Origin: Acidobacteriaceae bacterium
GTDB lineage: Bacteria > Acidobacteriota > Terriglobia > Terriglobales > Acidobacteriaceae
Reading direction: 5' to 3'
NCBI GenBank assembly: GCA_003132405.1
Contig: PKXQ01000117.1
Location: forward strand, 29,524-93,523
Length of the DNA: 64,000 nt
Below, piece by piece: positions 17,132-41,012 of this stretch. The first letter of the stretch is position 1. Every line of letters starts with the position of its first letter. The notes beneath the pieces are model-generated. The model saw only the letters and a list, made by a program, of their open reading frames with translations, was not told the DNA's origin and ran no database searches. Both the position numbers and the translations under genes were made by a program.

Positions 17132-17158
17132 TTTGGCTCCTATTTCTTTGCTGCGGTT

Positions 17159-18607: not shown

Positions 18608-18657
18608 TTTGTGTTTCTCCTGGATGAAACCGGCACCACCTGTCGGATCGGTGCGAC

Positions 18658-21324: not shown

Positions 21325-21388
21325 TTGCAACTCTTCTTTCCTCGATTCGTGAAAGCGCGAAGTCATAAAAAAGTAAAGAGCACGACTC

Positions 21389-23369: not shown

Positions 23370-23398
23370 TGTATACGTTATCCCGTAATACGGACTAA
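23370..23398 (-). promoter_or_regulatory. Candidate promoter of the TPR-GH38-GH30-GH30 operon
   Basis: On the minus strand TTAGTC (23398-23393) and TATACA (23375-23370, continuing AAT) are separated by exactly 17 bases. The palindromic operator at 23382-23394 fills the spacer and the end of the -35 element, a position suited to repression. The -35 match to consensus is weak. Confidence 0.4.
23382..23394 (+). promoter_or_regulatory. Palindromic operator, site 1
   Basis: CCCGTAATACGGA: an 11-bp perfect palindrome (CCGTA-A-TACGG) with one mismatch in the outer pair relative to sites 2 and 3. Flanks also agree in the same orientation (AT before, CT or CA and purine-A after). It lies between the leftward TPR operon (106 bp to start) and the rightward GH2-GH38 operon (138 bp to start). 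Probable target of the IclR-family regulator encoded at 35645-36484. Confidence 0.65.
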
Positions 23399-23532
23399 GT
23401 TCCGCTTTGTTTTATATTGACGCTGACGGGAAGAGTTTTGTAGGATGAGCGGGCTTCTGACTGCGACGTTTTGATGGTTCGGTTGAGCTTGGGTTTTCTC
23501 GGCCTTTAGCGAGACAAGGGGACAAAACAACC

Positions 23533-26499
23533 ATGAGCAAGGCGAGAATCTCACGGCGGGATTGTTTAGCGCTACTGGGCGGAGGCGCGACGGCGGTTTT
23601 GACGCCAGGCGTTTCCGAAGCAGCACAAATTGCGCCCAAAGCTGCGGCGTCCGATTCCAATCGCCAGAGCGGTACGGTAGCGGTGCAGAGCCTGCTCGAA
23701 GAGATAAAAGAGCTAAGCGCTCAGCGGGTTTTTGCGCCTACGCCGGTCCAGCCGAGACCAGAGTACATCACCGGGGCCCAGTATGTTGCGAGCGGCGTGC
23801 AGATGGATTTTCACGACGGCTGGGAATTGCAGGCTGCCGATGAAGCGCTACCTCCGGGCCAATACGCATCTGATCGTCCATGGGTTAAAACTCAGATGCC
23901 ACGGCCGGTGCAATATGCGCTGATGGAGGCCGGCGAAGTCCCAAACCTCTGGTACGGCGAAAACTTCAAAAAATTGCAGTGGATTCAGCAACGCGATTGG
24001 TATCTGCGGCGTCGCTTCGTGATTCCGGAGATGTGGCGCGATTCGGTGATCCGGCTGAGATTCGACGGAATGGATTATCTCGGCATGGTCTGGCTGGACG
24101 GGGAATTCCTGGGAGGACATGAAGGTTCGTTCGGTGGTCCAACATTTGATATCAGTACGAGAATCGTTCCTGGCAAAGAGCATGAGTTGCTGGTGCGATT
24201 GGTGCACGAACCGCACGATCAATTGCCGAACTATGACAATTCCAGTGAGAACCGGAATCCGAGAGTGGTGAAGCCGGACGCGCAGGATGCGGAAAGCTAT
24301 CAGTGGGGAAATCGATATCGGACTTTTGGCCTTTATCAACCGATTCGAATCGTGGCCACTGGCGAAGCGTATATCGAAGCGCCGTTCGTGCGAACCGATG
24401 CGATCGGCGCGGAATCGGCGACGTTATGGGCGCAGGCAATGTTAAGCAACACGGGGACTACTACTTTTGACGGCGTGATCGATGCGCAGATTGTCGACGT
24501 TGCGAGCGATCAGGTGGTATGGCAAGCGAAGTCACGCCAGAAGGTGCCCGCGGGCAATTCGTTTTGGGAGCGGGAAATCGAACTGGGCCATCCGAAATTG
24601 TGGTGGCCGAACGGTATGGGCAAGCAGCCTCTCTACCGGCTGGAATTGAAACTCACAAAAAACGACACGCAGCTGGATTTTATTAGCAGCCGATTTGGCG
24701 TTCGAACGCTGCAGTTGAAGCGTAATCCGTCGTATGCTGACGCGCCTCGAGCAGTTCCTGCCGACAAGACGCTTGAGGATGAAGCCTACATGTATTTGTG
24801 GGTTGCTAATGGGCGCCCGTTTTATGCCAAGGGCGCTTGCTGGATGACGAGCGACGACGTGCTGCAACTTTCGCCGGAGCGCGAGGAATGGATGATCCGG
24901 GCGGCGAAGCTCAGCGGGCACAACCTTCTTCGGTTGAACGGCGGCACCTCGATTATTGAGACGGAACAGTTTTATAACCTCTGCGACGAGCACGGATTGA
25001 TCGTGTGGCAGGAGGTCCCGCTCAATTGGGCGGACACGCCTGGGACGACGACGTTGGCTGTGTGGCGGGAACAGTTAACGCAAAGTGTTCTGCGCATACG
25101 GCAACATCCATCGATCGGGATCTACTGCGGAGGCAATGAATACGATCCTTTTCAAGATACGATCGAGCCGTTTCTCGGGCTGGTGCGAGAGGTCTTCGCG
25201 GGGTACGATGGCAGCCGGCCGTTTCGCATGAATTCGCCGTGCGGCGGTGATTATCACGCCTACGAGCCGCAAGATATTTATACGGCTGACGAAAACTGGT
25301 ATCACAAACTTTTCGATCGAGGACACTATTTCATTTCTGAGTGGTCGTTCAGCAGTTTTGCAAATCTTTCTTTGCTAAAGCGGATGATTCCGGCGGCTGA
25401 ACTGGAGATGAAACCGGTTGGCTACGATGTGGAGAAGTTCAAGCGGCGACACACCACGATTCGAGATCGCAGCGCTGAGCTCAATTACACGTTCGTTAAG
25501 AGTTGGCAACGAGCGTCTTGGTATGACGATTTCGCTAAGCTGGATCTGGAGCAATTGATCGAGTGCAGCCAAATGGCGTACGAACATAATATTGGCTGCG
25601 TGCTCGAGCAGTGGCGCGCGCAGTTTCCTTATACCGGCGGCGAAACACTTTGGACCTACAATTCGCTGGGGCCGATTGCGAATAGCTGGCACCTGATTGA
25701 TTGGTGCGGACAGCCGCAGATTCCGTTCTACGCGACGCTGCGCGCAAATGAGCCGATTCACGTGATGGCGGACACAGGATTCTTTTCGTGGGGGCCGGGA
25801 GATACATTCCACGCGTCGGTATTTGCTTTGAATGACCGCGAGCAGGGGCTCAAGGGAGGTCGTTTCCGTGCGCGTATTTATGATCAGGCGATGCGCGTCG
25901 CGCATGAGGATGAGTGGGTGAGCGACGTTCCGCCTAATGGCTACGCGAGTGAGAGCCACGAGGTGCGTTGGCCGATACCGGCTAACACGCGGGAAGGATA
26001 CTTATTTCTTGAACTGACTCTGAGCGATGGCGGAGGTTCAAGACTTTCTCGTCGCGCGTATTGGTTGCGCATTGTGCCAATGCTGGCGGATCCGGAAGCT
26101 AGAAAACGCTGGCAAGCCGCGCCCGTGGCCGAACCGCTGACGCAGACCGGACCTTGGTTGAGACCGCAGATTGAGGCGTCGGCTACTGCGCTGCAGGCCG
26201 CGGCAAAGGTTGACCATCTCTCGCAAAAGGAAATTGAGGTCAGTGTCACCATCGAGAATCAGGGGAAAATTCCTGCTTATCCAGTGCGCTTGCATCTGTT
26301 GCCTGATTTCTATTCAGTGCTTTGGAGCGACAACTATTTTTGGCTGGCCGCCGGGGAGAAAGCTACGATTCGAGGCACAGTGCGCGTGGATATGAAAGGC
26401 CTAGATCCGATCACGAAGCCGCCGGTCGCGAGCCGCGGAGATCTGCGGATTCGGGTATCGGCATGGAATGCTCCCGCCACAGAATTGCATCTGGGATAA
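23533..26499 (+). CDS. Exported GH2-family beta-mannosidase-like glycosidase
   Basis: 988 residues. The Tat signal is RISRRDCLALLGGGATAVL. The GH2 layout is clear: a sugar-binding jelly roll (WYLRRRFVIPEMWRDSVIRLRFDGMDY, MVWLDGEFLGGHEGSF), an immunoglobulin-like domain ending in LWWPNGMGKQPLYRLELKL, and a TIM barrel with acid/base Glu536 (CGGNEYDP) and nucleophile Glu603 (FISEWSFSSF). The GMGKQPLY motif before the barrel is usual in beta-mannosidases and exo-glucosaminidases. C-terminal beta domains end near LRIRVSAWNAP. It is followed by the GH38 gene after 75 bp, and the palindromic operator lies 138 bp upstream. The pair GH2 plus GH38 suggests release of beta- and alpha-mannose, but other beta-sugars are possible. 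Confidence 0.85.
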   Translation: MSKARISRRDCLALLGGGATAVLTPGVSEAAQIAPKAAASDSNRQSGTVAVQSLLEEIKELSAQRVFAPTPVQPRPEYITGAQYVASGVQMDFHDGWELQAADEALPPGQYASDRPWVKTQMPRPVQYALMEAGEVPNLWYGENFKKLQWIQQRDWYLRRRFVIPEMWRDSVIRLRFDGMDYLGMVWLDGEFLGGHEGSFGGPTFDISTRIVPGKEHELLVRLVHEPHDQLPNYDNSSENRNPRVVKPDAQDAESYQWGNRYRTFGLYQPIRIVATGEAYIEAPFVRTDAIGAESATLWAQAMLSNTGTTTFDGVIDAQIVDVASDQVVWQAKSRQKVPAGNSFWEREIELGHPKLWWPNGMGKQPLYRLELKLTKNDTQLDFISSRFGVRTLQLKRNPSYADAPRAVPADKTLEDEAYMYLWVANGRPFYAKGACWMTSDDVLQLSPEREEWMIRAAKLSGHNLLRLNGGTSIIETEQFYNLCDEHGLIVWQEVPLNWADTPGTTTLAVWREQLTQSVLRIRQHPSIGIYCGGNEYDPFQDTIEPFLGLVREVFAGYDGSRPFRMNSPCGGDYHAYEPQDIYTADENWYHKLFDRGHYFISEWSFSSFANLSLLKRMIPAAELEMKPVGYDVEKFKRRHTTIRDRSAELNYTFVKSWQRASWYDDFAKLDLEQLIECSQMAYEHNIGCVLEQWRAQFPYTGGETLWTYNSLGPIANSWHLIDWCGQPQIPFYATLRANEPIHVMADTGFFSWGPGDTFHASVFALNDREQGLKGGRFRARIYDQAMRVAHEDEWVSDVPPNGYASESHEVRWPIPANTREGYLFLELTLSDGGGSRLSRRAYWLRIVPMLADPEARKRWQAAPVAEPLTQTGPWLRPQIEASATALQAAAKVDHLSQKEIEVSVTIENQGKIPAYPVRLHLLPDFYSVLWSDNYFWLAAGEKATIRGTVRVDMKGLDPITKPPVASRGDLRIRVSAWNAPATELHLG

Positions 26500-26574
26500 T
26501 CGATTGTCGCGAGCATAGGCTAGCGCGAGCATAGGCCGCGTCGCCTGGCGATTTCGCTACTTACTGGAGCTTAC

Positions 26575-29500
26575 ATGAAAATAGGATGTCTCTGTTTCGC
26601 CGCGTTTCTGGCGATCGCGATGTCGTGTTCTGCACAGGAAATTACCGGGGCGTGGCAAACTTCTGTTCAAGAGCATGGGAAACCAGTGCGTTATGTTATC
26701 CATATCTCGCGCGCGAATGGCGCACTGGCGGCCACTTTTGACGTTCCTGAGCGTTTTGATTTCGCCGATTCCGTCGACTCGATCATTTTTGATAGTTCGA
26801 TTCTGAAATTTCGCGCCGGCCAGGCGTCCTATGAAGGCAAGCTTTCGCCCGACGGGCAATCGGTTCAAGGGACTTGGTCGGTAGGCACGGAAAAGCAAAG
26901 TGTCACATGGCAGCGCGCCGGTTCGGGCCCTGGTAGCCGCATTGAAGCTGTCGCGATCAAGCTGCAATCGCTCATGCACCTTCCCGAGGAAGAATGGAAA
27001 ATTCACTCGGGCGATATTGCGAATGGTGAAGCAGTCGATCTCGACGACAGTTCGTGGAAGATCGTGGGGCCGAATAGCACGGGGCCGCACGAGGCGCTTT
27101 GGTACCGGCGATGGATTGAAATTCCGAAAACTTTGAATGGCTACGATCTCACGGGAGCCAGAGTGTGGTTCAACTTTCAGGACGATGCGAATGGTCCGGC
27201 TACGCAGATCGTTTATTTCAATGGGAGGCGTGTGGCGATGGGCGACGATCTTGAGCCCATCATTCTTTTTGATCCTGCGAAACCGGGCGACAAGATTCTG
27301 GTTGCGGTAAAGCTTCTGCAAACGGTGGACGAAAAACATTTCACGGGCGCCGACCTGCGAATCGCATTTGCAAAAACGCGTCCAGATCCAGCCTACCTTT
27401 TTCAAGAGATGGGAAGTGTTTCAATTCTGGCGCCCAATGCGGGTGCGTCTGCTTCGAAGATGCACGCCGCTCTCGCCAGTTGCGCGGACGCAGTTGATCT
27501 GGATGCCTTGGCACGCGCCGATCAGGCGGCGTTTGACGCGTCGCTCAGGAAAGCACGAGCGCTGCTCGAACCGGTCAACGCAGATTTACAGCAAACCTCG
27601 GTCCGATTGACTGGCAATTCACACATCGACGCCGCCTGGCTTTGGCCATGGACGGAAACGGTGGATGTGGTGAGAAGGACATTCGGGACCGCGCTCCAGT
27701 TGATGGATGAATATCCGCAATACACCTACACGCAGTCGGCCGCCGCCTATAACGAATGGATATTTGAAAAATATCCATCCATCCACGAGCAAATTGTCAA
27801 TCGCGTGAAGCAGGGGCGATGGGAGATGGTGGGTGGAATGTGGGTAGAGCCCGACTTGAATATGCCAGATGGAGAATCGCTGGTGCGACAGCTTCTCCTT
27901 GGCAAAAGGTTCTTCAAGGAAAAGTTTGGCACCGATGTGCGCATCGGATGGAACCCCGATTCGTTTGGATACAACTGGCAGTTGCCGCAAATCTACAAGA
28001 AATCTGGGGTTGATTATTTTGTCACACAGAAGCTGACATGGAATGATGCCAACCAATTGCCAATGAAATTATTTTGGTGGCAATCACCGGATGGCAGCCG
28101 CGTCCTCACGTATTTTCCGCACGATTATGTCAACGATGTTGAGCCGTTAAGAATTGCCTCTGATGTAGCGGCGCTTCAAACGGCCGCTCCCGGCGTGCCT
28201 GAGATGATGCATCTCTTCGGAATTGGCGATCATGGAGGGGGTCCGACGCGTGTGATGCTAGAGGACGGCGTGCATCTGTCGAGCCCGACCGTAATTTTTC
28301 CGAAGACCAGCTTCGGCGTTGCGCAAGGATTTTTCTCTGATGTCGAAGGCAAAGCCGATACTGCGCACATGCCGCTATGGAATTACAAAACGCTAGCCGC
28401 GGGAAACATGCAACTGCCGGCGCCGCCAGCAGGCAAGTTCAGCCTGCCGGTTTGGAATGACGAATTGTATTTGGAATATCATCGCGGCGTTTTCACTACG
28501 CAGGCGAATCACAAGCGGAACATGCGCGAGAGCGAAGAACAATTGCTGAATGCCGAGAAATATTCGTCACTGGCGTGGCTTTCCGGATTGCAGTATCCGC
28601 AGATTGAATTAAATGAAGCATGGAAAAAAGTGCTGTTCAATCAATTTCACGATCTCGCCGCAGGTTCAGGGATTGCGGATATATATAAGGATGCGCAGCG
28701 GGATTACGATTTTGTGCGACTGCAAGCTGAGCATGTGACGAATACAGCTCTTGGCAAGGTTGCAAGCCAGATCGACACTAGAGGGCGCGGAGTGCCGGTG
28801 CTGGTGGTGAATCCTCTCGCGTGGGAGAGAACAGATCTAGTTTCGATTCATGTAGAAATGCCGGAGGCCGAGAAAGGCGAACTGTCAGTTCTCAGTGCTA
28901 AAGGCGAGGCGCTACCGTTTCAAGTGCTTTCGCATGATTCAACTTTACATACCTATCAACTGTTGACCGAAGTCAAGAAAGTGCCGTCGCTCGGATACGA
29001 GGTGCTTCATGTTGTTCCCGGCGCGGGCCGCACGGAGACCGATATAAAGGTCCACGGTCTCACGCTGGAAAATGAAGCGCTGCGGGTAACCGTCGATTCG
29101 AAGACTGGTTGCATTACGAGCCTTTACGACAAAGTTTCCAAGTTTGAGTCAATCGCAGCTAACGCTTGCGGAAACGAATTGATTGCTTTCAAGGACACTC
29201 CCAAAGATTTTGACGCCTGGAATATCGACGCTGATTTCGAGCAACAATTCACCAGACTCGATATGGTGGATTCGGTCGATGTCACCGAAACGGGCCCACT
29301 GCGCGCCACTATCCGCGTGACTCGCAGTTGGCAAAAGTCTAAGTTCGTTCAAAATATTTCTATCTACGCCGGCCTCAATCGAGTCGACGTTGGCAATGAA
29401 ATCGACTGGCACGAGACGCACATTTTATTGAAGGCTGCGTTCCCCGTAGCGGCCTCAGGGAATGAAGCTACATACGAGATTCCGTATGGCACGATCGAGC

Positions 29501-30111
29501 GTCCGACCACGCGCAACAATCGTTTTGAGGCGGCGAAGTTTGAAGTGCCCGCGCTGCGCTGGGCCGACCTCGGCGACGCGAATCATGGTTTCAGCTTGAT
29601 CAATGAATCTAAATATGGGTATGACGCCAAGGGGAACGTATTGCGAATTTCTTTGCTTCGCTCGCCCACATGGCCTGATCCTGACGCCGATCGCGGCCAC
29701 CATAGCTTCAGTTACTCGCTCTACGCTCACAGCGGAGACTGGAAACAGGGGCTGAGCGTGCGCCGCGGATATGAATTCAACTACAAGCTCGCGGCGATTC
29801 CGGTCGAGTCTCACGAAGGAATTCTTCCTCCGGCTCACTCGTTCGTGGAGATTAAACAGGACAACGTCATCCTGACGGCGATGAAGAAGACGGAAGATGG
29901 GAACTCATTATTGTTTCGCTTTTATGAGTGGGCGGGCAAAAGCGGCGAGGTGCAGATCTCCGTTCCACCAGGTGCTACGGAAGCCAGACTCACAAATCTG
30001 ATGGAGCAGTCAGAGGTTGGGACGCTGCCAATTCTGGGCACGAATGAGATCACCGTGCCGGTTCACGCTTACGCGATCGTTTCGGTGCGGGTGAATTACC
30101 CAGTCAAGTAA
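26575..30111 (+). CDS. Exported GH38 alpha-mannosidase with N-terminal extension
   Basis: 1178 residues. A signal peptide (MKIGCLCFAAFLAIAMSCSA) is followed by an unusual N-terminal module of about 100 residues (ITGAWQTSVQEHGKPVRYVI, LSPDGQSVQGTWSVG) and a jelly-roll-like part. The GH38 domain starts near residue 345: zinc site NSHIDAAWLWPW (about 350) and nucleophile Asp near 461 in GWNPDSFGYNWQLPQI, then FVTQKLTWNDANQLP. Central helices and C-terminal beta domains follow (VNPLAWERTDLVSIHV, ENEALRVTVDSKTGCITSLYD). It is a canonical class II alpha-mannosidase, unlike the divergent GH38 on the other strand. Second gene of the rightward operon; it converges on the FG-GAP gene five bases later. 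Confidence 0.93.
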   Translation: MKIGCLCFAAFLAIAMSCSAQEITGAWQTSVQEHGKPVRYVIHISRANGALAATFDVPERFDFADSVDSIIFDSSILKFRAGQASYEGKLSPDGQSVQGTWSVGTEKQSVTWQRAGSGPGSRIEAVAIKLQSLMHLPEEEWKIHSGDIANGEAVDLDDSSWKIVGPNSTGPHEALWYRRWIEIPKTLNGYDLTGARVWFNFQDDANGPATQIVYFNGRRVAMGDDLEPIILFDPAKPGDKILVAVKLLQTVDEKHFTGADLRIAFAKTRPDPAYLFQEMGSVSILAPNAGASASKMHAALASCADAVDLDALARADQAAFDASLRKARALLEPVNADLQQTSVRLTGNSHIDAAWLWPWTETVDVVRRTFGTALQLMDEYPQYTYTQSAAAYNEWIFEKYPSIHEQIVNRVKQGRWEMVGGMWVEPDLNMPDGESLVRQLLLGKRFFKEKFGTDVRIGWNPDSFGYNWQLPQIYKKSGVDYFVTQKLTWNDANQLPMKLFWWQSPDGSRVLTYFPHDYVNDVEPLRIASDVAALQTAAPGVPEMMHLFGIGDHGGGPTRVMLEDGVHLSSPTVIFPKTSFGVAQGFFSDVEGKADTAHMPLWNYKTLAAGNMQLPAPPAGKFSLPVWNDELYLEYHRGVFTTQANHKRNMRESEEQLLNAEKYSSLAWLSGLQYPQIELNEAWKKVLFNQFHDLAAGSGIADIYKDAQRDYDFVRLQAEHVTNTALGKVASQIDTRGRGVPVLVVNPLAWERTDLVSIHVEMPEAEKGELSVLSAKGEALPFQVLSHDSTLHTYQLLTEVKKVPSLGYEVLHVVPGAGRTETDIKVHGLTLENEALRVTVDSKTGCITSLYDKVSKFESIAANACGNELIAFKDTPKDFDAWNIDADFEQQFTRLDMVDSVDVTETGPLRATIRVTRSWQKSKFVQNISIYAGLNRVDVGNEIDWHETHILLKAAFPVAASGNEATYEIPYGTIERPTTRNNRFEAAKFEVPALRWADLGDANHGFSLINESKYGYDAKGNVLRISLLRSPTWPDPDADRGHHSFSYSLYAHSGDWKQGLSVRRGYEFNYKLAAIPVESHEGILPPAHSFVEIKQDNVILTAMKKTEDGNSLLFRFYEWAGKSGEVQISVPPGATEARLTNLMEQSEVGTLPILGTNEITVPVHAYAIVSVRVNYPVK

Positions 30112-30116
30112 GAAGT

Positions 30117-31835
30117 TTACTGTCGTGGCTCCTCGATGGTCATCGCGCGGTCGACCTCTGCGTTGTGAATTTCTTGTCTGATGCCGCTCGGCCAGTGAAT
30201 CTGTATCTCTTTGATGCGCCGGTTCGCACCTAATCCGAAGTGCACTCGGCTATCGCTCGAAGACGCGTAGCCGACGGCCGTTGTCACGTGATTCCACTGG
30301 CGGTTGCCATCCTCGGTGGTGATGCGTATCTGCGCGCCAATTGCCATGCGATTACTCTTTGTGCCAACCAGATTCAGCAGAATCCAGTGATGATTATTAT
30401 CGGAAATGTTGCGAAATAATTTCGCGGAGCCGCCTAGCACGGAGACCACCATGTCTACGCGGCCGTCATTGTTGAAATCTCCGAAGGCCACGCCACGATG
30501 CGGAGCTTCGAGTTGAAAGTCTGGCCCCGCCGCAGTACTTACATCTTCAAATTTTCCGTTGTGGAGATTTCGGAAGATTGAATTTGGTTCCGGATAACGG
30601 CGGTTGGGGAAGGGGATATTAATATTGTCCACTACATTCGAGCGGGCGACAAACAAATCTTTCCAGCCGTCGTTATCGAGGTCGTAAATGCCATTGCCCC
30701 AGCCCGACATATTTCCCGTTGCCAGAGCCAAGCCGCTGGAGGCGGTCATATCGTAGAAATTTCCAGCGCCCCGGTTTATGTATAGCGGGAAAGTCTCGTG
30801 TTCGATTGCGGTGTGCCAGAGGTCGGGGCGGCCGTCGTTATTCACATCGCGAAAATCCAACCCCATGCCGGAGAGCGCCGTGCCGTGTGCGCCATAAGCC
30901 ACGCCTGCCTCGACGCCGATCTCTTCGAATTTCTTTCCGCCGATATTGTGGAAGAGGAAATTGCGAGTGGTGTCATTGGCAACGAAAATGTCGAGGAAGC
31001 CGTCGCCGTCATAATCGGCGAAAGCGACGCTCATTCCCTTCCCCATGTGCTCGGCGATTCCGGTCGCTTCGGAAACATCGGTGAAGGTTCCGTCGCCGTT
31101 ATTGCGATAGAGCGTGTTGTGCAGCGGCGCGTAGAACTTGGGATGGCAGTAACCACGCACATCGCTGTTGAGCGCGCAGACGGGATCTTTATTAACTTCC
31201 CACTTGCAGTAATTCACAACGAAGAGATCGAGGAGGCCATCATTGTTATAGTCAAACCAGCCGGCGCTGACCGACCACATTTTTTTACCGTCGAGGAATG
31301 CCCCGCCCAGTCCGGCTTTTGCGGTGACGTCGGTGAAGGTGCCGTCGCCGTTGTTGTGGAATAACTGATTGCCGGTGACGTTGGCGACGAACAGATCGGG
31401 CCATCCATCGTTATCGTAGTCGCCGACTGCCACGCCCATGCCGTAGCCCGTTCCGGCAACTCCTGCCTTCTCGGTTACGTCGGTGAAGGTGCCATCGTGA
31501 TTGTTGTGAAAGAGGCGATTCCAATATTGAGGCGAGTCTTTTTGCAGCGACGGGATCGCGGCGCCATTGACGAGGTAGATGTCGAGGTAGCCGTCGTGGT
31601 CATAGTCGAAGAGGGCGACTCCGGCAACTAGCGTCTCGATCTGGTTTTTATTGGTAGTGGGACAGTTGGCGGTTATGAAATGCAGGCCGCTCTTCGCCGC
31701 GATTTCTTCGAATCGAATTGGGCTGGCTGCGGTGGCTGTGGAGGCTTGTTCTGCGCTGGCGCGCAACAAATTCTGCGGCCACATGCACAGGAGTCCCGCG
31801 CCCGCAGCTTTGCCGAGGAACTTTCTTCTATCCAT
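30117..31835 (-). CDS. FG-GAP repeat / ASPIC-UnbV (CRTAC1-type) exported protein
   Basis: 572 residues. The N-terminus looks like a Tat signal (MDRRKFLGKAAGAGLLCMW). At least seven FG-GAP blades carry calcium-binding loops of the DxDxDG type (DYDHDGYLDIYLVNG, DYDNDGWPDLFVANV, DYDGDGFLDIFVAND, DLDNDGWKDLFVAR, DFNNDGRVDMVVSV), predicting a seven-bladed integrin-like propeller. The C-terminal ASPIC/UnbV domain spans about 485-560 (IGAQIRITTEDGNRQWNHV, HFGLGANRRIKEIQIHWPSG). Such proteins are common near TonB receptors and TPR proteins in Acidobacteriota; function is not established, with carbohydrate or protein binding most likely. The stop codon is 5 bp from the convergent GH38 gene. Confidence 0.9.
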   Translation of the reverse strand: MDRRKFLGKAAGAGLLCMWPQNLLRASAEQASTATAASPIRFEEIAAKSGLHFITANCPTTNKNQIETLVAGVALFDYDHDGYLDIYLVNGAAIPSLQKDSPQYWNRLFHNNHDGTFTDVTEKAGVAGTGYGMGVAVGDYDNDGWPDLFVANVTGNQLFHNNGDGTFTDVTAKAGLGGAFLDGKKMWSVSAGWFDYNNDGLLDLFVVNYCKWEVNKDPVCALNSDVRGYCHPKFYAPLHNTLYRNNGDGTFTDVSEATGIAEHMGKGMSVAFADYDGDGFLDIFVANDTTRNFLFHNIGGKKFEEIGVEAGVAYGAHGTALSGMGLDFRDVNNDGRPDLWHTAIEHETFPLYINRGAGNFYDMTASSGLALATGNMSGWGNGIYDLDNDGWKDLFVARSNVVDNINIPFPNRRYPEPNSIFRNLHNGKFEDVSTAAGPDFQLEAPHRGVAFGDFNNDGRVDMVVSVLGGSAKLFRNISDNNHHWILLNLVGTKSNRMAIGAQIRITTEDGNRQWNHVTTAVGYASSSDSRVHFGLGANRRIKEIQIHWPSGIRQEIHNAEVDRAMTIEEPRQ

Positions 31836-31919
31836 AAAGAGGCAAGCTTAAACCATCTGTGCTTGGGCGGGTAGGAAGGACGCCTTCAGAGTTCTCGATT
31901 GTTGACCGAAGAAAGCTTG

Positions 31920-31949
31920 AACCACAAAGGACACAAAGGTACACGAAGG
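31920..31949 (+). repeat. Short triplicated repeat (ACAAAGG-type)
   Basis: Three adjacent units of about 10 bases, ACCACAAAGG, ACACAAAGG and TACACGAAGG, lie in the 184-bp space between the FG-GAP gene and the TonB receptor gene. I recall this unit type in noncoding DNA of many soil bacteria. No coding role is seen. Confidence 0.6.
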
Positions 31950-32019
31950 TTTGCTCAGGCGTTTTCTTGAAGGTAGCGGAGCGGGAGACCTGCGCTGAGC
32001 AAGCCCCCGCCCCCTCACT

Positions 32020-35000
32020 TTAGAAGGTGTAGCGCAGCGCGAATTGAATTTCGCGCTGGTTGTCGCCCAGCGTACTGGTGACTGCTGCGCCCTCGTGCGC
32101 GCCTCCCTGGTCGGGATTGTTGTTTGACCGAGAAAACTGTGGATGGTTGAAGACGTTAAACATCTCCGCGCGGAATTGAAGATTTTGCCGCTCGGTGATT
32201 TTGAAATTCTTGAACGCCGAGAAATCAAAGTTCACCTGATGCGGCCCCACAAGATCGCCATCCCCAGCCGTGCCAAAGTCGTGGGCGGAGAGTTGACCGG
32301 GCGCCAAGGGCGGCTGGACAAAGGCAGCCGGGTTGTACCAGCAGAGGAGCGTTCGGTGGCCCGGATTGTCGCACCCATCGAGCGTTTGCTGTGGAATATT
32401 GAAGGAGAAATCGGTTGGATCATGGATTTTATCGGGAAGCGCGGATGTACCGGTATTGGTGTCATCGGATGACCAAAAAGCGGTGTAGTGCTCCCCGCTC
32501 CGTATGGTGGTAATTCCCGCAACCTGCCAGCCGCCAGCAACGGAATTCTCAAACGCATTCATACCTGCGCCATAGGGCTTGCCGCGGCCGAATGGCAATT
32601 CATAGGTGTAGCTGACAGTAAGACGGTGACGAAAATCAGGATCGACATTCCCTCTTTGAGCGTTGGGGAAATCGGCAATCTGCGTCTGCCCTGTGTGAGC
32701 GCCCTGGAAGCTGCCGATGTCGTGCGACCACGTGTAGGAGGCGAGCAGAGTTAGTCCCTTGGAGAATCGCTTTTCCAACTTTGTCTCTAAGCCGTGAAAG
32801 CCGACGCTAAAGTTTGGATAATCGATGGGGTTGATCACCGAAAGGTAAGGCAAAACGTTGTAATAGGGACGTCCGTAGTTCCCTGACAATAGAGGATCAA
32901 CCATGGGGTTGCTGCTGAAGTTGTTGTCGAGCGGCTGGAGCGGCTGGTCCAGGTTGCTGTCTTCATTGTTCCAGATGCCGGTCGCATGCGTCCCCACGTA
33001 CGAAACATGGAGGACAATATCGCGCGTCAATTCGCGCTGGACAGACAGGTTCCACTCGATAACTCGGGGAGGCTTGCGCTCCGAGCCGGTGGTTTTGACC
33101 TGACCAGACGGGGAAGCGGGCTTGCTGGTGGGAAGCTGAGAGGGAAAGCCCGAATCGATCAGCAAGGCAGTCGTGTTGGGAATCGTAGTGGCCGGCTCAG
33201 GCACCTGGTAATACTGAAGGCTTGGCGGATTCTCGCCGATATCGTTGAACTGATTGCCTTCCGGGGCATAGAAAATTCCGAAGGCACTGCTCACCACAGT
33301 CTTGAGATCCGAGAAAGGCATCCAGGCAAAGCCAATGCGGGGGCCAAAGTCTTTCTCGTCGTAGCCTACCCCGGCATTCGGTTTTGATCCCGGCCCGAAG
33401 TTGAGGTCGACGACGTTCGTTGCCAGATTAAAATTGCCGACCTGTCCGCCCACGGGAGACATCAGGTCATACCGCAAACCGAGATTCAAAGTTAGCCTTG
33501 GTGTAACTCGGAAGTCGTCCTGGACGAACCCACCAAACTCAAAAAATCGGGTGTGATCTTTGTAGGCTAGACCGTCCTGCTCTCGGTAGTCGGGCACACC
33601 GAGCAAGAGATCCGGCAAACCATACTGGGGTGAGGTTCCCGTGGTTGCCACGGTGAACTGACCATTGAAATTGAATTGTCCGAACGCAGCTTCCGATTGG
33701 TAGAAGTTGCGCTGATATTTCCGGTAATCAACTCCCAGCTTGATCGTGTGCTTTCCTCGCACCCAGCTCACCGAGTCCGCGATTTGATAAGTGTTGTCGG
33801 CCGAGAGTTCGGGAATCCAGTAGGAGTTGCCCAGGTCTGAGTAGGTGTTAACACCGATATTAGCCAGACCCGAAGTCTCTTCGTTGCCGCGATTGGCATT
33901 TGGAATACCGACCTGGTCTGAAATGTTTTGGCCGAAGTCATCTGGCGTGGAATTCACCGCGTAGCGAAGAAAAGAAAAGCGCAGATCATTGAGCACGTTG
34001 GTGCCGAAGGTGTGGCTCCAACCAACGGCATGGTTTTGTTCGCGCATATTATAGTTGCCGCCGCAGCATCCCTCGGCCAAACCCGGCAATGGTGGCGGAT
34101 TGTACTGGGGATGATCTTCAACCGAAGCGTGGCCAAAAAGCTGATCGTGGTCGGTGAGCCTGTGGTCTATGCGGATATCGCCCTGGTTGCCGTCGGTGAT
34201 GGCTACCGGGAAATAAACGAAGTTCTGGCAGGGGAACGGTGTCGGGCAGGTAACGTTGGGGAGCGGGTAAAGGTTGACGATGTTTTGTCCAATCGTATCA
34301 ATGCGGTTCGCTGGGATTACCGTAGGGTTGGACGGGTTCATCAGTTGACGTGTGCCCAGTGTGCAAGTTGGTGGTCCGACAACACAAGTTGTGAGCGGGT
34401 CATAAATCTGAAGTCCGATGTCGGTGAAGTCTCCTCCGCGTTCCGCCACAGTGGGAACGGTGCCTTTGTCGATGCCCGCCTCATGCAGGCGCGATCCCTG
34501 GAAGTCGGCGAAGAAGAAGGTGCGGTTCCTGATGATCGGGCCGCCAATGAGGGCGCCGAACTGATTGCGGTGCAACGGCGCCTTCGGGCCATTGCTATCC
34601 GGATTGAAATAATTCCTCGCATCGAGAGCGTCGTTGCGCATGTATTCATAGAGCCCGCCATGGAACTGATTGGTTCCTGACTTGAGCGCCGCATTCACCG
34701 CTGCGCCGCCGCGGCCGAACTCCGCTTTCATGGCGCTTTCTTCTACGCGGAATTCGCCAATCGCGTCGGGAGCCGGATTTACGGCAATGGTGCCATCGCC
34801 GATGCCATTGTTGTCTACTCCATCAAGGAGGAAGTTATTGTCGAAGGCCCACAAGCCATTGACGGCTAGCTGAATGCCGGGACGATTGTCGTCGGTCGAA
34901 CCGCTCAGTCCGATGCCCGAAGCCGATCCTGGAGTAGTTCCCGGCCCCAGCCAGGCGAGTTGGGTAAACATTCGGCCGTTCAGTGGCAGATCGACGATTC

Positions 35001-35433
35001 TTTCCTGGGTTTCGACGGTTCCAAGTGACGACGTTTCCGTGGCCAAAAGCGGGCTCGCGGCAGTCACTTCGGTTGTCTGACTTTCTGAACCTACCTTGAG
35101 CTGCAAGTCGACTTGCGCTACCTGGTTGACGTTGAGTTGTATGCCGGTTTGCAGCGTCTTTTGAAAACCCTTGGAAGTGGCTTCAACCGAGTAAGTGCCA
35201 ATCTGAAGAATGCGAGCGTTGTAAATTCCGGCGCTATCGGTGGTGAGATTCACGACCTGGTTGGTGCCGAGGTTGGTGACGGTTACGGTGGCGCCTTGTA
35301 CAGCGGCGCCTGAGGGGTCGGTGACGGTGCCGGAAATGGTTCCGCGATCGATCTGCGCCTCAAGGGTGGCGGCGGTGAGAAATAGAGCTAATAAACAAAC
35401 CACAACGCGGATAGTTTTGCTATGTGCGGTCAC
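32020..35433 (-). CDS. Oar-like TonB-dependent receptor with carboxypeptidase-regulatory domain
   Basis: 1137 residues from GTG 35433, chosen because GGAGG lies five bases upstream and the signal peptide (TIRVVVCLLALFLTAATLEAQ) follows; a longer frame exists but has no such support. After cleavage comes a CarboxypepD_reg-like beta domain (RGTISGTVTDPSGAAVQGAT), then a plug-like region (VDLPLNGRMFTQLAWLGPGT, FLLDGVDNNGIGDG, AEFGRGGAAVNAALKSGTNQ) and a large C-terminal barrel ending in the aromatic LRYTF. This is the usual form of oligosaccharide or peptide importers of the Oar type in Acidobacteriota. An operator palindrome lies 138 bp before the start, with the IclR gene upstream in the same direction, so it is probably the outer-membrane gate for the glycan degraded by the nearby hydrolases. 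Confidence 0.93.
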   Translation of the reverse strand: MTAHSKTIRVVVCLLALFLTAATLEAQIDRGTISGTVTDPSGAAVQGATVTVTNLGTNQVVNLTTDSAGIYNARILQIGTYSVEATSKGFQKTLQTGIQLNVNQVAQVDLQLKVGSESQTTEVTAASPLLATETSSLGTVETQERIVDLPLNGRMFTQLAWLGPGTTPGSASGIGLSGSTDDNRPGIQLAVNGLWAFDNNFLLDGVDNNGIGDGTIAVNPAPDAIGEFRVEESAMKAEFGRGGAAVNAALKSGTNQFHGGLYEYMRNDALDARNYFNPDSNGPKAPLHRNQFGALIGGPIIRNRTFFFADFQGSRLHEAGIDKGTVPTVAERGGDFTDIGLQIYDPLTTCVVGPPTCTLGTRQLMNPSNPTVIPANRIDTIGQNIVNLYPLPNVTCPTPFPCQNFVYFPVAITDGNQGDIRIDHRLTDHDQLFGHASVEDHPQYNPPPLPGLAEGCCGGNYNMREQNHAVGWSHTFGTNVLNDLRFSFLRYAVNSTPDDFGQNISDQVGIPNANRGNEETSGLANIGVNTYSDLGNSYWIPELSADNTYQIADSVSWVRGKHTIKLGVDYRKYQRNFYQSEAAFGQFNFNGQFTVATTGTSPQYGLPDLLLGVPDYREQDGLAYKDHTRFFEFGGFVQDDFRVTPRLTLNLGLRYDLMSPVGGQVGNFNLATNVVDLNFGPGSKPNAGVGYDEKDFGPRIGFAWMPFSDLKTVVSSAFGIFYAPEGNQFNDIGENPPSLQYYQVPEPATTIPNTTALLIDSGFPSQLPTSKPASPSGQVKTTGSERKPPRVIEWNLSVQRELTRDIVLHVSYVGTHATGIWNNEDSNLDQPLQPLDNNFSSNPMVDPLLSGNYGRPYYNVLPYLSVINPIDYPNFSVGFHGLETKLEKRFSKGLTLLASYTWSHDIGSFQGAHTGQTQIADFPNAQRGNVDPDFRHRLTVSYTYELPFGRGKPYGAGMNAFENSVAGGWQVAGITTIRSGEHYTAFWSSDDTNTGTSALPDKIHDPTDFSFNIPQQTLDGCDNPGHRTLLCWYNPAAFVQPPLAPGQLSAHDFGTAGDGDLVGPHQVNFDFSAFKNFKITERQNLQFRAEMFNVFNHPQFSRSNNNPDQGGAHEGAAVTSTLGDNQREIQFALRYTF

Positions 35434-35571
35434 AGTTTCCTCCACGAGCCGACGATTTCCCGAGATTCTTAAATTTTTCTCAAAGCGCTTAGATGTACGG
35501 AACAAAACGGGCCAATGGTACAAAATCCTTCCACCAGCGTCAACAACAAAATGCAAAAATTTGGAATTCAG

Positions 35572-35584
35572 TCCGTATTACGGA
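35572..35584 (-). promoter_or_regulatory. Palindromic operator, site 2
   Basis: TCCGTATTACGGA is a perfect 13-bp palindrome with a single central base. Read on the minus strand it is preceded by TTGCAAT and followed by CTGA, matching site 3 (TTGCTAT and CAGA). It lies 138 bp upstream of the TonB receptor start and 60 bp after the IclR stop. An odd, A/T-centred palindrome is the kind bound by IclR-family dimers. Confidence 0.7.
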
Positions 35585-35644
35585 ATTGCAACCACGGAAG
35601 CGAGCCGTGAATTCAAAAAAATGTAGACGAAATATGAATTCGCG

Positions 35645-36484
35645 TTATTGCGGGTGGGAAGCAGAACCATCGGTTGCCAGCGTACTCGGCGACAACATCT
35701 GCGAGAGAGTTAGCGCTGAGCTGCGGATCTCTTCCTGAATCTGGGGGAGTTTCGGCTCCATGCGGGCGGCCGGGCCGGAAATGCTGAGGCTGGCAACCAC
35801 GCGGCCCACGTGGTCGAAGATGGGAGCGGCGACGCAAACCACTCCGGTGAGATTTTCTTCCATGTCGAGCGCTACAGACCTCTCGCGTACCGATGCCAGA
35901 TGTTCGAGAAGATGCTTCTTCTGCGTAATTGTCTTAGGCGTCCGGCGAATCATTGGGTGGCGCCCGATGATGGACTCGACTTCGCTCTCGGGAAGAAACG
36001 CAAGCATGACCTTTCCCAAGGCGGTGCTGTGAACAGGATTCCGCTGTCCGGGAATGGCGGCCGCGCGCAGCACGCTGGGGCTTTGCAGCACTTCAATGTA
36101 GGCGACCTGGCCCTCATCAAGGACGCCTAAGTTGATGGTTTCGCCGAAACGGAGCAGCAGATTCTGCATGACGCTTTTGGCGGCCCGCTGCAGGCGGCGG
36201 AAATGGATGGCGGGGCCAGTCAATTCAAAAAACTTGGGGGCCAATTGGTAATGCGACTTGACGTCGTCCTTCTCGACGTAGCCGAGTTTTTCCAGCGAAT
36301 ACAAGATGCGATGGACAGTGGTTCTGGCAAAGGGGACCGCGCTGGCCACTTCGACAAACGCCACGGACTTTTGCTTGCCGCCGGCCTCTACGAAGTATTC
36401 GAGGATGGCGAAAATCTTGCCCATCACCTCGATGTAATTCTTGTCGGCTTGCACACGCTGCGGCTTGTTCGATTTTTTTGCCAC
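35645..36484 (-). CDS. IclR-family transcriptional regulator
   Basis: 279 residues from GTG 36484; AGGAAG six bases upstream fits better than the ATG 15 bp earlier. The N-terminal winged helix-turn-helix is seen in IFAILEYFVEAG, FVEVASAVPFARTTVHRILY and SLEKLGYVEKDDVKSHYQLA. The C-terminal effector domain (about 95-265) has LGVLDEGQVAYIEVLQSP, HSTALGKVMLAFLPESEVE and FDHVGRVVASLSISGPAAR, the usual small-molecule pocket. IclR proteins repress or activate catabolic operons in response to sugar acids or aromatic acids. It lies between a sugar porter and the TonB receptor, and palindromes at 35572 and 38167 flank this block. It is the only transcription factor recognised in the window, so it is the best candidate to bind them. 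Confidence 0.93.
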   Translation of the reverse strand: MAKKSNKPQRVQADKNYIEVMGKIFAILEYFVEAGGKQKSVAFVEVASAVPFARTTVHRILYSLEKLGYVEKDDVKSHYQLAPKFFELTGPAIHFRRLQRAAKSVMQNLLLRFGETINLGVLDEGQVAYIEVLQSPSVLRAAAIPGQRNPVHSTALGKVMLAFLPESEVESIIGRHPMIRRTPKTITQKKHLLEHLASVRERSVALDMEENLTGVVCVAAPIFDHVGRVVASLSISGPAARMEPKLPQIQEEIRSSALTLSQMLSPSTLATDGSASHPQ

Positions 36485-36627
36485 GTCAAGCTTCCTCATT
36501 AGCCCGGTACTGATTGTAGCCAACGTTCGATTGCTTGTGGGTCTAGTTCTCAAACGCCGAATCAGGATAACTGACCTCACTGGGCGGGGCTTGATATCCA
36601 CGCTCATAGCCAGCCGGGAAACGAACC

Positions 36628-38022
36628 TTACTGCGTTCCCATAGGGTTCCACGAATTTTCGATCTGTTCGAGAGTGCGACCCCGAGTTTCCGGCACCATG
36701 CGCAGCGAGAACACGAATGCGACTACGCAGAGGCCGGCAAATAAAAGGAAGCATCCCCTCATTCCGAGATGCTCGACTATGGTTAGAAAGGTAGCGGTGA
36801 CGAGAAAGTCGCCGGCCCAGATGGTCATGGTTGCGAGCGACATGGCTTGAGCGCGAACCGTCGTGGGATAAATCTCGGAGATGAGAAGCCAGAAGATGGG
36901 GCCGAGGCCAATATCAAAGGCGGCGAGATAAACGAGAACATCGGTCACCACCAGCCATTTCTTGGGGTGCGGATCGCCGAGAATAAAAGCGAGGTGAAGT
37001 AGTGCCACGCACATTCCACAGAGGCTTACCAGAAGCAGCGGCCTACGGCCGACTTTGTCGACCAGAAACATGGAGATGATTGTAAAAGCCAGGCCGACCG
37101 ATCCAATGAGGAAAGTGGCGAGGATTGCGTTGCCTGCGCTGCCGAAGCCCACCATCTGGAAAATGGTTGGAGCGTAGTAGACGATTGTGTTGACGCCGGT
37201 TATTTGCTGGAAGATCGCCAATCCTATGCCGGCGATAAGGGGTTTGCGAAAACGGCGCACGAGCAGATCGCGAAACTTTAGCTGATCGGTCTCGGTTACG
37301 TGTCGGAGTTCTTCCAAATCTCGCGCTGCCTTCTCCGGAGTCTCAATGCGCGCGAGAACTCTGGAGGCAGCGGCGAAGTCGCCATGGGCCGCGAGCCAGC
37401 GGGGAGTTTCGGGCAGAAACACCAGCCCAATGAGAAGAATCAGCGAGGGCACCACCGCACTCATGAACATCAATCGCCAGTTACCGGAGCCGGCTAAGCG
37501 GTAGTCGACATAATATGCGACGACCACGCCGGTCGAAATGGCCATCTGGTTAAGGGTTACGAGCGCTCCTCGAATATTCTCGGGCGCGAGTTCGGCGATA
37601 TAGAGGGGCACCAGCATAGAGCTTATGCCTACCGCAGCTCCGACAAACAGACGAGATAACACAAAGACAACGGTGCCGGTTGCGAGGCCAGTCGTAATCG
37701 CAAAAATTCCATAGACCACCGCGGTTATGAGTAGGGTCGGCTTGCGCCCGAATCGATCTCCGAGATATCCGCCAAAGGCGGTCCCGGCGAGAGCGCCTGC
37801 AAGAACAACGCTAACGGCGATCTCGGTTTGAAACGAGGTTAGATGAAACTGATTGCGTACAAACAGGATCGCTCCCGAGATAACGGCAGTGTCGTATCCG
37901 AAGAGGAATCCGCCGATCGCGACCGTGATGGAGGTAATCACTATGAAGCTTCGCCGAGAGGCGTGTGACCGACCCTCTATCGCGGAAGTAGACTTCCCGA
38001 CCGGCTCCGTAGCTCGTATCAT
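36628..38022 (-). CDS. Sugar-porter family MFS transporter (upstream of iclR-type gene)
   Basis: 464 residues from ATG 38022; a longer frame to 38154 exists but overlaps the operator region and lacks family similarity. Twelve hydrophobic segments are expected. Sugar-porter signatures: FGYDTAVISGA in TM1, GGYLGDRFGRKPTLL after TM2, LPETPRWLAAHGD at the central loop, FQQITGVNTIVYYAPTIF in TM7, DKVGRRPLL, and the C-terminal VPETRGRTLEQIE. These proteins import monosaccharides or sugar acids by proton symport or facilitation. It diverges from the aldolase operon, with palindromic site 3 between them (144 bp to this start), and precedes the IclR gene by 143 bp. No ribosome binding site is obvious. 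Confidence 0.93.
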   Translation of the reverse strand: MIRATEPVGKSTSAIEGRSHASRRSFIVITSITVAIGGFLFGYDTAVISGAILFVRNQFHLTSFQTEIAVSVVLAGALAGTAFGGYLGDRFGRKPTLLITAVVYGIFAITTGLATGTVVFVLSRLFVGAAVGISSMLVPLYIAELAPENIRGALVTLNQMAISTGVVVAYYVDYRLAGSGNWRLMFMSAVVPSLILLIGLVFLPETPRWLAAHGDFAAASRVLARIETPEKAARDLEELRHVTETDQLKFRDLLVRRFRKPLIAGIGLAIFQQITGVNTIVYYAPTIFQMVGFGSAGNAILATFLIGSVGLAFTIISMFLVDKVGRRPLLLVSLCGMCVALLHLAFILGDPHPKKWLVVTDVLVYLAAFDIGLGPIFWLLISEIYPTTVRAQAMSLATMTIWAGDFLVTATFLTIVEHLGMRGCFLLFAGLCVVAFVFSLRMVPETRGRTLEQIENSWNPMGTQ

Positions 38023-38166
38023 GCGGAGCAGTATAGTCGCCGAGCATGCGGTGTCAACAGCAATCGCATTTCTTGGTGGCGGTATTAAGTCCGTCAGGCG
38101 GGATATATAGATTAAGACTGTCGATTTTATTAATAACAAGCAAGAATGGAGCAACAGTTTTGCTAT

Positions 38167-38179
38167 TCCGTATTACGGA
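38167..38179 (+). promoter_or_regulatory. Palindromic operator, site 3
   Basis: TCCGTATTACGGA, identical to site 2, in the divergent region between the sugar porter (144 bp) and the aldolase operon (107 bp). TTGCTAT before and CAGA after match the minus-strand flanks of site 2. TTGCTA at 38160-38165 could be a -35 element for the rightward operon, but no good -10 was identified at the right distance. Confidence 0.7.
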
Positions 38180-38286
38180 CAGATGTTTAATATTGACTTA
38201 TTTCGCGCATCGCCGTTATTATCCCGCGATGCGATGATGGGGCGCCAGTTAGATTCCGCCGAACTGAAACGAAAGCGAGGGCTACC

Positions 38287-39087
38287 GTGAAGAAGAGCAG
38301 GACGCTGGAGAAATTGCGCGCGGGAGATTTTGTAAGGGTTGTGAACATTAACCGCGTACCCGAGCCATGGCTCACAGAAGTGGCGGGCAATCTGGGCTTC
38401 GATGTGATCTGGTTCGACATGGAACATCGTGCTCACGGTTACGAAGTCATCGATCGATTGTCGCTGGCCTGCCGTTTGACTGGCGCGGACCTGATGGTCC
38501 GAATCCGCAAGACGGGATACACGAGCGCCCAACGTCCTTTGGAATTCGGTGCAAATGGAATTATGCTTCCACACTGCCGCAGCGTCGAAGAAGCGCGCCA
38601 GTGGGCCTCATGGACGCGATTCCCTCCGGAGGGAACGAGAGGTTTCGACAACGCGGGAGCGGATGGGGGCTACGCTCTCACGAACGCTGTCGAATTCCTG
38701 AATGAACGGAATAAAGAAACTTTTCTCATGGTCCAAATCGAAGACCGCGAAGCGGTCGATTGTGTAGAGGGAATTGCCGCAGTCGAAGGCGTAGATTTGA
38801 TGTTCGTCGGTCCCGGAGATTTGACGATCAGCTATGGTATTCCCATGCAGCGCGATCATCCGCTCATACAACGCGCCTTGGACAGAGTGGCGAATGCCGC
38901 TGCCAAGGCGGGGAAATGGTGGGGGACGGTGACGGAAACTCCAGAGGTAGCGCAACTGGAGCTCGATCGAGGCGCGCGCATGGTGACCTGCGCGGACGAC
39001 CATTTCCTGCTCGCCCACGGAATGCGGGACGCATATCGACTGTTTGAAAACATTAAAGTTCGAGAACAATCTTCTTCCGCGAGGTAA
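38287..39087 (+). CDS. HpcH/HpaI-family aldolase (2-keto-3-deoxy sugar acid type)
   Basis: 266 residues from GTG with GAGGG upstream. HpcH/HpaI enzymes are class II aldolases that split 2-keto-3-deoxy acids into pyruvate and an aldehyde. The barrel motifs are present: FDVIWFDMEHRAHGYEVID with the catalytic His, RIRKTGYTSAQRPLEFGANG, IMLPHCRSVEEAR, the metal ligand Glu in VQIEDREAVDCVEGIAAVEG, and Asp in MFVGPGDLTISYGIP. The C-terminal ARMVTCADDHFLLAHG replaces the usual GSD-type ending. Upstream is the operator palindrome, and downstream at 10 bp begins the hydrolase gene. With the dehydratase and dehydrogenase of this operon it fits the last step of a non-phosphorylative sugar-acid pathway. 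Confidence 0.9.
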   Translation: MKKSRTLEKLRAGDFVRVVNINRVPEPWLTEVAGNLGFDVIWFDMEHRAHGYEVIDRLSLACRLTGADLMVRIRKTGYTSAQRPLEFGANGIMLPHCRSVEEARQWASWTRFPPEGTRGFDNAGADGGYALTNAVEFLNERNKETFLMVQIEDREAVDCVEGIAAVEGVDLMFVGPGDLTISYGIPMQRDHPLIQRALDRVANAAAKAGKWWGTVTETPEVAQLELDRGARMVTCADDHFLLAHGMRDAYRLFENIKVREQSSSAR

Positions 39088-40898: not shown

Positions 40899-41012
40899 TT
40901 TCAGGTGCACGTTTCTGCCATTGCAACGACCAGCCGGCATGGGTTGCCGAGCCGAGGCGATAGTCATGACAAATGCCCTTCGAGGCCGGTGCGGAAGGAA
41001 GAGTTGAGTCGA

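What the first reader, a model, noticed from the sequence alone, without database searches (positions are those of the whole stretch)
23382..38179. One palindrome, TCCGTA-N-TACGGA, marks a probable IclR-controlled glycan regulon
The 13-bp palindrome is exact at 35572 and 38167 and one base off at 23382. Flanks agree outside the palindrome (AT before; CA or CT then G/A-A after when sites 1 and 3 are read on + and site 2 on -; TTGC(A/T)A precedes sites 2 and 3). The sites front two divergent glycosidase operons, the TonB receptor, and the divergent porter/aldolase operons. The only nearby regulator is IclR-type and lies between two of the sites. E. coli IclR also binds an odd A/T-centred palindrome. 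I know of no description of this box.
Basis: partly seen in the sequence, partly recalled or inferred. Interest (0 to 1): 0.8.

Follow-up and report, generated by a model that had tools for sequence, protein, structure and literature searches.

The report
IclR-type operators of a glycan-sugar-acid regulon
A DNA palindrome repeated in this bacterial genome is very likely the binding site of a neighbouring regulator that controls genes for breaking down and taking up a sugar polymer; the same site recurs at the same genes in related bacteria, so it is a real gene switch of an ordinary kind.

Summary
In detail: TCCGTA-N-TACGGA is exact at 35572 and 38167 and one base off at 23382, all intergenic. 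Genome-wide counts are not enriched, but conservation is strong. Eight orthologues of the window's IclR protein (58-73% identical, other families of the class) were found. In 110,549 bp around them this palindrome ranks first of 4096 half-sites (4 exact, 11 with at most one mismatch). Around 32 non-orthologous IclR hits (435,509 bp) there are 0 exact and 1 near site. Exact sites on other contigs of orthologue-bearing genomes front TonB receptors, the aldolase and a GH2 operon. The box is not a new type: it fits the published IclR group 1 core (PMC8222616). Most likely an IclR-family activator responding to a 2-keto-3-deoxy sugar acid; sign and effector are inferred, not shown.

The parts
23382..23394 (.). 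operator 1, CCCGTAATACGGA, between the TPR-GH38-GH30-GH30 genes (-) and the GH2-GH38 genes (+)
   Evidence: profile score 25.3, third best in the window (the profile was built with this site among its 14)
35572..35584 (.). operator 2, TCCGTATTACGGA, between the iclR stop and the TonB receptor gene
   Evidence: in L135 and L138 the site downstream of iclR fronts a GH2 gene instead
38167..38179 (.). operator 3, TCCGTATTACGGA, between MFS-iclR (-) and the aldolase genes (+)
   Evidence: the same region carries two copies in L135 and in L138
38090..38102 (.). degenerate palindrome TCCGTCAGGCGGG (profile score 10.0), possibly a remnant operator, possibly chance
23417..23446 (+). predicted promoter of GH2 (TTGACG-18-TAGGAT), site centre at -65
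   Evidence: TTGACG-17-TAGGAT at -61 before the GH2 genes of L135 and L138
35515..35543 (-). predicted promoter of the TonB receptor (TTGACG-17-TACCAT), site centre at -70
38193..38222 (+). predicted promoter of the aldolase genes (TTGACT-18-TATTAT), site centre at -56
   Evidence: counterparts at -60 (L135) and -63 (L138)
38030..38057 (-). predicted promoter of MFS-iclR (TTGACA-16-TATACT); in L135 and L138 the same hexamers carry an operator at -58/-59, missing or decayed here
35645..36754 (-). IclR-family regulator (likely start 36499)
   Evidence: Pfam HTH_IclR and IclR_C; orthologues
36628..38154 (-). MFS sugar porter (likely start about 38022), overlapping and probably in operon with iclR
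   Evidence: TIGR00879 above cut-off
38287..39087 (+). HpcH/HpaI-type aldolase, probably for a 2-keto-3-deoxy sugar acid
39098..40069 (+). metallo-beta-lactamase-fold hydrolase, probable aldonolactonase
   Evidence: role inferred from context
40161..40898 (+). SDR dehydrogenase, probable sugar dehydrogenase
   Evidence: role inferred from context
40905..42161 (+). enolase-superfamily aldonate dehydratase, nearest the galactonate/gluconate type; within 5 kb of iclR in 6 of 8 orthologous loci
42201..45926 (+). GH2 glycosidase (beta-galactosidase-like)
32020..35556 (-). TonB-dependent Oar-like receptor (true start probably 35448 or 35433)
   Evidence: OMP_b-brl_4 and TonB_dep_Rec_b-barrel
23533..26499 (+). 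GH2 glycosidase (beta-mannosidase-like)
   Evidence: 68% identical orthologue with an operator in L135
26575..30111 (+). GH38 alpha-mannosidase
15662..23275 (-). GH30, GH30, GH38 and TPR genes, divergent from operator 1; membership in the regulon uncertain (GH30 genes follow the dehydratase in L135 and L138)
   Evidence: for 15662-17131, 18658-21438 and 21389-23275; 17159-18607 was not scanned, named GH30 from its similarity to the same relatives

Best explanation
The palindrome (consensus ATTCCGTAWTACGGAAT) is the operator of the IclR-family protein encoded at 35645-36499. Supported by comparative genomics: the operator travels with this IclR orthologue group and marks the same target genes (aldolase, MFS-iclR, GH2, TonB receptors). 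Inferred, about 0.6: a dimer bound about 60 nt upstream of the start of transcription activates its promoters, as a class I activator would. Inferred, about 0.5: the inducer is a 2-keto-3-deoxy sugar acid made by the nearby dehydratase, so that polymer degradation, outer-membrane uptake, sugar import and the dehydrogenase-lactonase-dehydratase-aldolase route rise together when the intermediate appears. The confidence given is for the operator and its regulator.
For: Loci around 8 orthologues, window excluded: rank 1 of 4096 half-sites, 4 exact and 11 with at most 1 mismatch, in 6 of 8 loci; the two loci without (G511, G510) belong to genomes with exact sites on other contigs, at a GH2 operon, the aldolase and a TonB gene. 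Controls: 32 loci around other IclR hits, 0 exact and 1 near; 8 loci with MBL relatives and no orthologous iclR in the locus (3 of them from genomes that carry it elsewhere, the own genome included), none with a site of at most 1 mismatch. Recognition helix FARTT[V/T]HR in 9 of 9 orthologues and in 0 of 13 other IclR proteins aligned. In six genomes 5 of 5 exact sites are intergenic and 4 of 5 front aldolase, TonB or GH2 genes. Promoter geometry 9 of 9 against 93 of 4000; then 4 of 16 intergenic sites in six other genomes. Core fits group 1. IclR-type YjhI (activator) and XynR (repressor) answer to 2-keto-3-deoxy-D-xylonate (PMC13279387, abstract and passages). Dehydratase within 5 kb of iclR in 6 of 8 orthologous loci.
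Against: No binding, expression or ligand data. Counts at up to one mismatch do not exceed the reversed-pattern control in 7 of 9 genomes. With up to two mismatches the half-site falls to rank 26 of 4096 over the whole orthologous loci, though it stays first in their intergenic part. The 5 near sites in L136, L137, L140 and L142 have no promoter match at -54 to -72, and 2 of 26 in-gene sites have one. Promoters are consensus matches only; the offset window was chosen after seeing the first nine sites, which are about four promoters in related genomes. Some IclR-family proteins are repressors. One exact site (G461:C108) fronts genes of no evident relation.
Confidence: 0.85

Rival explanations
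1. Same operator and same IclR protein, but the protein is a repressor released by the inducer, like XynR or KdgR; from its upstream position it blocks the alpha subunit or loops between sites.
For: The IclR family includes repressors and dual regulators (PMC8222616 section 4); the divergent regions of L135 and L138 have two sites 209 and 204 bp apart that could loop.
Against: At 9 of 9 syntenic sites the operator is upstream of, not overlapping, the predicted -35 of the gene it serves; the window has only one good site in its divergent region.
Confidence: 0.35
2. The palindrome is bound by a different, unlinked regulator and the IclR gene is a bystander.
For: No direct binding evidence; regulators need not be adjacent to their targets.
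Against: Sites follow the orthologous iclR and are nearly absent around other IclR hits; the motif is of IclR type; family scans of the window cluster showed no second regulator (one GH30 gene not scanned). The orthologous loci were looked over by eye only.
Confidence: 0.06
3. Chance coincidence of a short palindrome.
For: The raw count in the genome equals the reversed-pattern control.
Against: Rank 1 of 4096 in loci not used to find the motif; intergenic placement; same target genes.
Confidence: 0.01
4. An RNA hairpin or termination element rather than a protein site.
For: Inverted repeat; site 2 lies soon after the iclR stop codon.
Against: At most 5 pairs around a 3-nt loop (read from the sequence) and no terminator-like hit in the three regions; it sits upstream of predicted promoters.
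Confidence: 0.01

Closest known systems
IclR-family group 1 motifs, WTT-11-AAW subgroup (Suvorova and Gelfand 2021, PMC8222616)
   Same: Core TYCRYW3RYGRA matched at every position by sites 2 and 3; 14-site consensus ATTCCGTAWTACGGAAT
   Different: The paper's main text does not mention Acidobacteria and its taxonomic table lists none; no 18-22 nt tandem pair here; site centres 114 and 145 nt from the aldolase and GH2 start codons, farther than the usual 20-80
YjhI and XynR of E. coli (PMC13279387, abstract and passages)
   Same: Predicted IclR-type regulators of aldonate dehydratase operons; YjhI activates; effector a 2-keto-3-deoxy acid
   Different: They control xylonate operons on cryptic prophage elements; the paper says their binding sequence is not characterised; no glycosidases or TonB receptors are mentioned in what I read
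KdgR of gamma-proteobacteria
   Same: IclR family; pectin and oligogalacturonate use (PMC8222616 Table 1)
   Different: Operator RWWGAAACGNCGTTTCAKKA (PMC8222616 Table 1); the window protein scores 168 bits against a cut-off of 275 for KdgR
Haloarchaeal IclR-like sugar activators XacR, GacR, RhcR, MscR (PMC11519228, passages)
   Same: IclR-like proteins reported as activators of sugar or sugar-alcohol catabolism
   Different: Archaeal; the terms binding site and palindrom do not occur in that paper's main text

Membership tests
IclR-family transcription factor | HTH_IclR and IclR_C domains | tested here: met
   PF09339 33.7 bits (cut-off 22), PF01614 155.1 (cut-off 24)
IclR group 1 operator | core TYCRYW3RYGRA | tested here: met
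   sites 2 and 3 match at every position; site 1 has C for the first T
IclR group 1 operator, WTT-11-AAW subgroup | W-T-T and A-A-W outer positions | tested here: inconclusive
   14-site symmetrised profile: -6 T 0.78, -7 T 0.53, -8 A or T 0.75
IclR-family operators | tandem second site 18-22 nt away (common, not obligatory) | tested here: not met
   no second scoring site that near the three
[quoted passage not shown]
   114 nt (aldolase) and 145 nt (GH2), from the ORF starts; TonB start uncertain; range
KdgR equivalog | NF011671 score at or above 275 | tested here: not met
   168 bits
BhcR equivalog | NF045644 score at or above 350 | tested here: not met
   181.3 bits
galactonate dehydratase equivalog (nearby enzyme) | NF010624 score at or above 311 | tested here: not met
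   282.9 bits
class I activator | operator about 60 nt upstream of the transcription start | tested here: inconclusive
   9 of 9 syntenic sites on predicted promoters, 4 of 16 intergenic sites in six other genomes; starts not mapped
class I activator | expression falls without the regulator | not testable with these tools
   needs a mutant or reporter

The most novel reading that the evidence does not exclude
In this Acidobacteriota class an IclR-family activator, bound at a fixed position near -60, runs a whole TonB-dependent glycan-utilisation regulon, including TonB and GH2 operons far from its own gene, and takes its cue from a downstream 2-keto-3-deoxy sugar acid rather than from the glycan itself.
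Probability: 0.4. Interest if true: 0.5.

Novelty: new member of a known kind. Interest (0 to 1): 0.4.

Why it matters
My one search combining IclR, Acidobacteri, regulon and binding site listed 2 papers, neither on the subject judged by title and opening of abstract, so defined regulons of this kind in the phylum seem scarce in the held library. This case gives an operator, its likely regulator, candidate targets in nine genomes and a testable sign, and it ties glycosidases and TonB receptors to one sugar-acid pathway, which narrows the search for their substrate.

Tried and rejected
Genome-wide count as evidence: rejected, no enrichment over the reversed pattern in the own genome (the looser pattern gave 408 against 621) or in the six genomes.

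Extra sites in the window with a profile of 14 sites: the fourth best score is 13.5, inside the aldolase gene, against 25.3 or more for the three.

Orthologues in the same genus: none above 36% identity among the matches in 23 congeners, several of them incomplete, so the footprint had to come from other families.

Terminator or attenuator: no terminator-like hit.

Effector-pocket comparison with E. coli IclR through the literature: no paper found; the residues I had in mind were from memory and are not used. A recalled position of the MhpR operator could not be confirmed from the listings and is not used.

Structure prediction was not run: it would not settle ligand or DNA preference.

Not examined or left out: contexts of 2 of 11 sites of G450 (C49, C65); 3 of the 21 one-mismatch sites (C70, C93:32764, C150) had no context looked at. 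All ten two-mismatch sites were left out of the profile. Genes in relatives were called by a simple ORF picker and named by eye from their first 60-75 residues, except those matched by tblastn to window proteins.
Full report
What was checked. The genome (5.72 Mb, 158 contigs) holds one other exact copy, inside a holB-like gene; with up to one mismatch there are 9 sites against 10 for the reversed pattern. Frequency alone therefore says nothing. Placement says more: 3 of 3 window sites are intergenic, against 1 clear and 1 ambiguous of 6 elsewhere.

What the genes are. Pfam and NCBIfam scans give an IclR-family regulator, an MFS sugar porter, an HpcH/HpaI aldolase, an MBL-fold hydrolase, an SDR dehydrogenase, an enolase-superfamily dehydratase nearest the galactonate/gluconate type, GH2, GH38 and GH30 glycosidases and a TonB-dependent Oar-like receptor. 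Read together, from family knowledge, this is outer-membrane uptake and cleavage of a glycan, import of a sugar, and a non-phosphorylative oxidation, lactone opening, dehydration and aldol cleavage. The substrate is not known: the dehydratase and the aldolase reach none of the NCBIfam cut-offs listed for them.

Phylogenetic footprint. Among the matches in 23 congeners none exceeds 36% identity. A scan of a collection of 84,980 species found two orthologues, at 73% and 64%. The two syntenic loci, L135 (=L094) and L138 (=L095), carry dehydratase-SDR-MBL-aldolase divergent from MFS-iclR, followed by a GH2 gene, and each has three palindromes: two between aldolase and MFS, one between iclR and GH2. 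Three of these six fall inside mechanically extended ORFs; for the two at the MFS gene the similarity to the MFS protein begins about 180 nt downstream of the site. In the window the GH2 gene starts 12 kb from iclR, and a palindrome lies with it (operator 1): the site follows the gene, not the place. GH2 of the window and of L135 are 68% identical; the L138 counterpart is a short piece, 40% over 180 residues.

Statistics. In the eight orthologous loci (110,549 bp, window excluded) I counted all 4096 6-base half-sites with one spacer base. TCCGTA ranks first: 4 exact (next best 1) and 11 with at most one mismatch (next best 6); the 180 permutations of the half-site, itself included, average 0.28. 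In intergenic sequence (ORFs of 120 codons or more masked) it is first again, 9 against 2. With two mismatches allowed it is rank 26 over the whole sequence and first in the intergenic part. The 11 lie in 6 of 8 loci. In 32 loci around non-orthologous IclR hits (435,509 bp) there are 0 exact, 1 with one and 8 with two mismatches. In 8 loci fetched for relatives of the MBL protein, without the orthologous iclR in the locus (one has a different IclR gene; three come from genomes that carry the orthologue elsewhere), there is none at one mismatch or fewer.

Sites elsewhere. In the genomes of L094 and L095 the palindrome has 8 and 11 sites with at most one mismatch against 3 and 3 for the control. 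Of the 13 outside the cluster 11 were looked at: 10 are inside ORFs and 1 is at a gene end. In the six other genomes with an orthologue I classified all 42 sites. The 5 exact ones are intergenic by ORFs of 120 codons or more (two lie in ORFs of 107 and 117 codons). They front an oxidoreductase-DUF-GH2 operon (G511, a 61% GH2 orthologue, on a contig other than that of iclR), the aldolase (G511), TonB receptors (G451, G510) and, in one case, genes of no evident relation (G461). Of the 37 one-mismatch sites 11 are intergenic, among them sites before dehydratase, iclR, aldolase and TonB genes; the other 26 are inside genes. The reversed control is higher than the real count in each of these six genomes.

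Known motif type. Suvorova and Gelfand 2021 (PMC8222616; abstract, sections 4, 13, 14, 16 and passages seen) define IclR group 1 operators as GKTYCRYW3-4RYGRAMC. TCCGTAWTACGGA fits its core; the profile from 14 sites, ATTCCGTAWTACGGAAT, is nearest the WTT-11-AAW subgroup. The paper's main text does not mention Acidobacteria. The exact strings occur in no held paper.

Regulator. The recognition-helix stretch FARTT[V/T]HR[I/V]LYSL is shared by the nine orthologues and by none of the 13 other IclR proteins aligned. With the footprint this is a correlation between helix and operator, not proof of contact.

Geometry. A simple sigma-70 scan gives, at all nine sites of the three syntenic loci, a promoter whose start lies 56-70 nt from the palindrome's centre, on the strand of the gene it would serve. 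Random intergenic positions show a promoter at 54-72 nt in 93 of 4000 cases. The nine are not independent: they are about four promoters in related genomes, and the offset range was set after seeing them. As a later test, 4 of 16 intergenic sites in the other six genomes fit (2 of 26 in-gene sites do too); the 5 near sites in L136, L137, L140 and L142 do not. Hexamers are conserved as well: TTGACA-16-TATACT before MFS in all three, though in the window its operator is missing or decayed (38090 may be a remnant). Upstream, non-overlapping placement is what class I activators show, from general knowledge, so I favour activation, at about 0.6.

Effector. XynR (repressor) and YjhI (activator) of E. 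coli, predicted to be IclR-type, answer to 2-keto-3-deoxy-D-xylonate, the product of dehydratases of their operons (PMC13279387, abstract and passages). Here the dehydratase lies within 5 kb of iclR in 6 of 8 orthologous loci, while the aldolase type varies (HpcH/HpaI, or a DapA-like protein, by eye). A 2-keto-3-deoxy acid is therefore the best guess, at about 0.5.

Verdict. Real, well supported as an IclR operator set, ordinary in kind, new in membership.

Noticed in passing
window 38022-38110; L135:12004; L138:6937: The MFS-iclR promoter hexamers are conserved, but the proximal operator present at -58/-59 in two relatives is missing or decayed in the window, so autoregulation may have been lost.
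   Followed up: partly
window 35645-36499: No iclR orthologue was found in 23 congeners while several exist in other families of the class, which suggests horizontal transfer, loss or a binning artefact; G+C of the cluster differs little from other contigs (0.550 against 0.563).
   Followed up: partly
G511 contigs C2 (L195), C81 (L139), C167 (L224): Regulon-type genes (GH2 operon, iclR-dehydratase, aldolases) lie on three contigs, two of them with an exact operator.
   Followed up: yes
G000:C91:54296-54308 (L053): One intergenic one-mismatch palindrome, TCCGTAAGACGGA, before an ABC-transporter-like gene next to a 4-alpha-glucanotransferase-like gene (by eye); possible extra target or chance.
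   Followed up: no
window 30117-31835: ASPIC/UnbV FG-GAP protein gene between the GH38 gene and the TonB receptor gene.
   Followed up: no
window 23350-23394, minus strand: TACAAT beside operator 1 on the strand of the TPR-GH38-GH30 genes could be a -10 whose -35 region overlaps the operator (read by eye).
   Followed up: no
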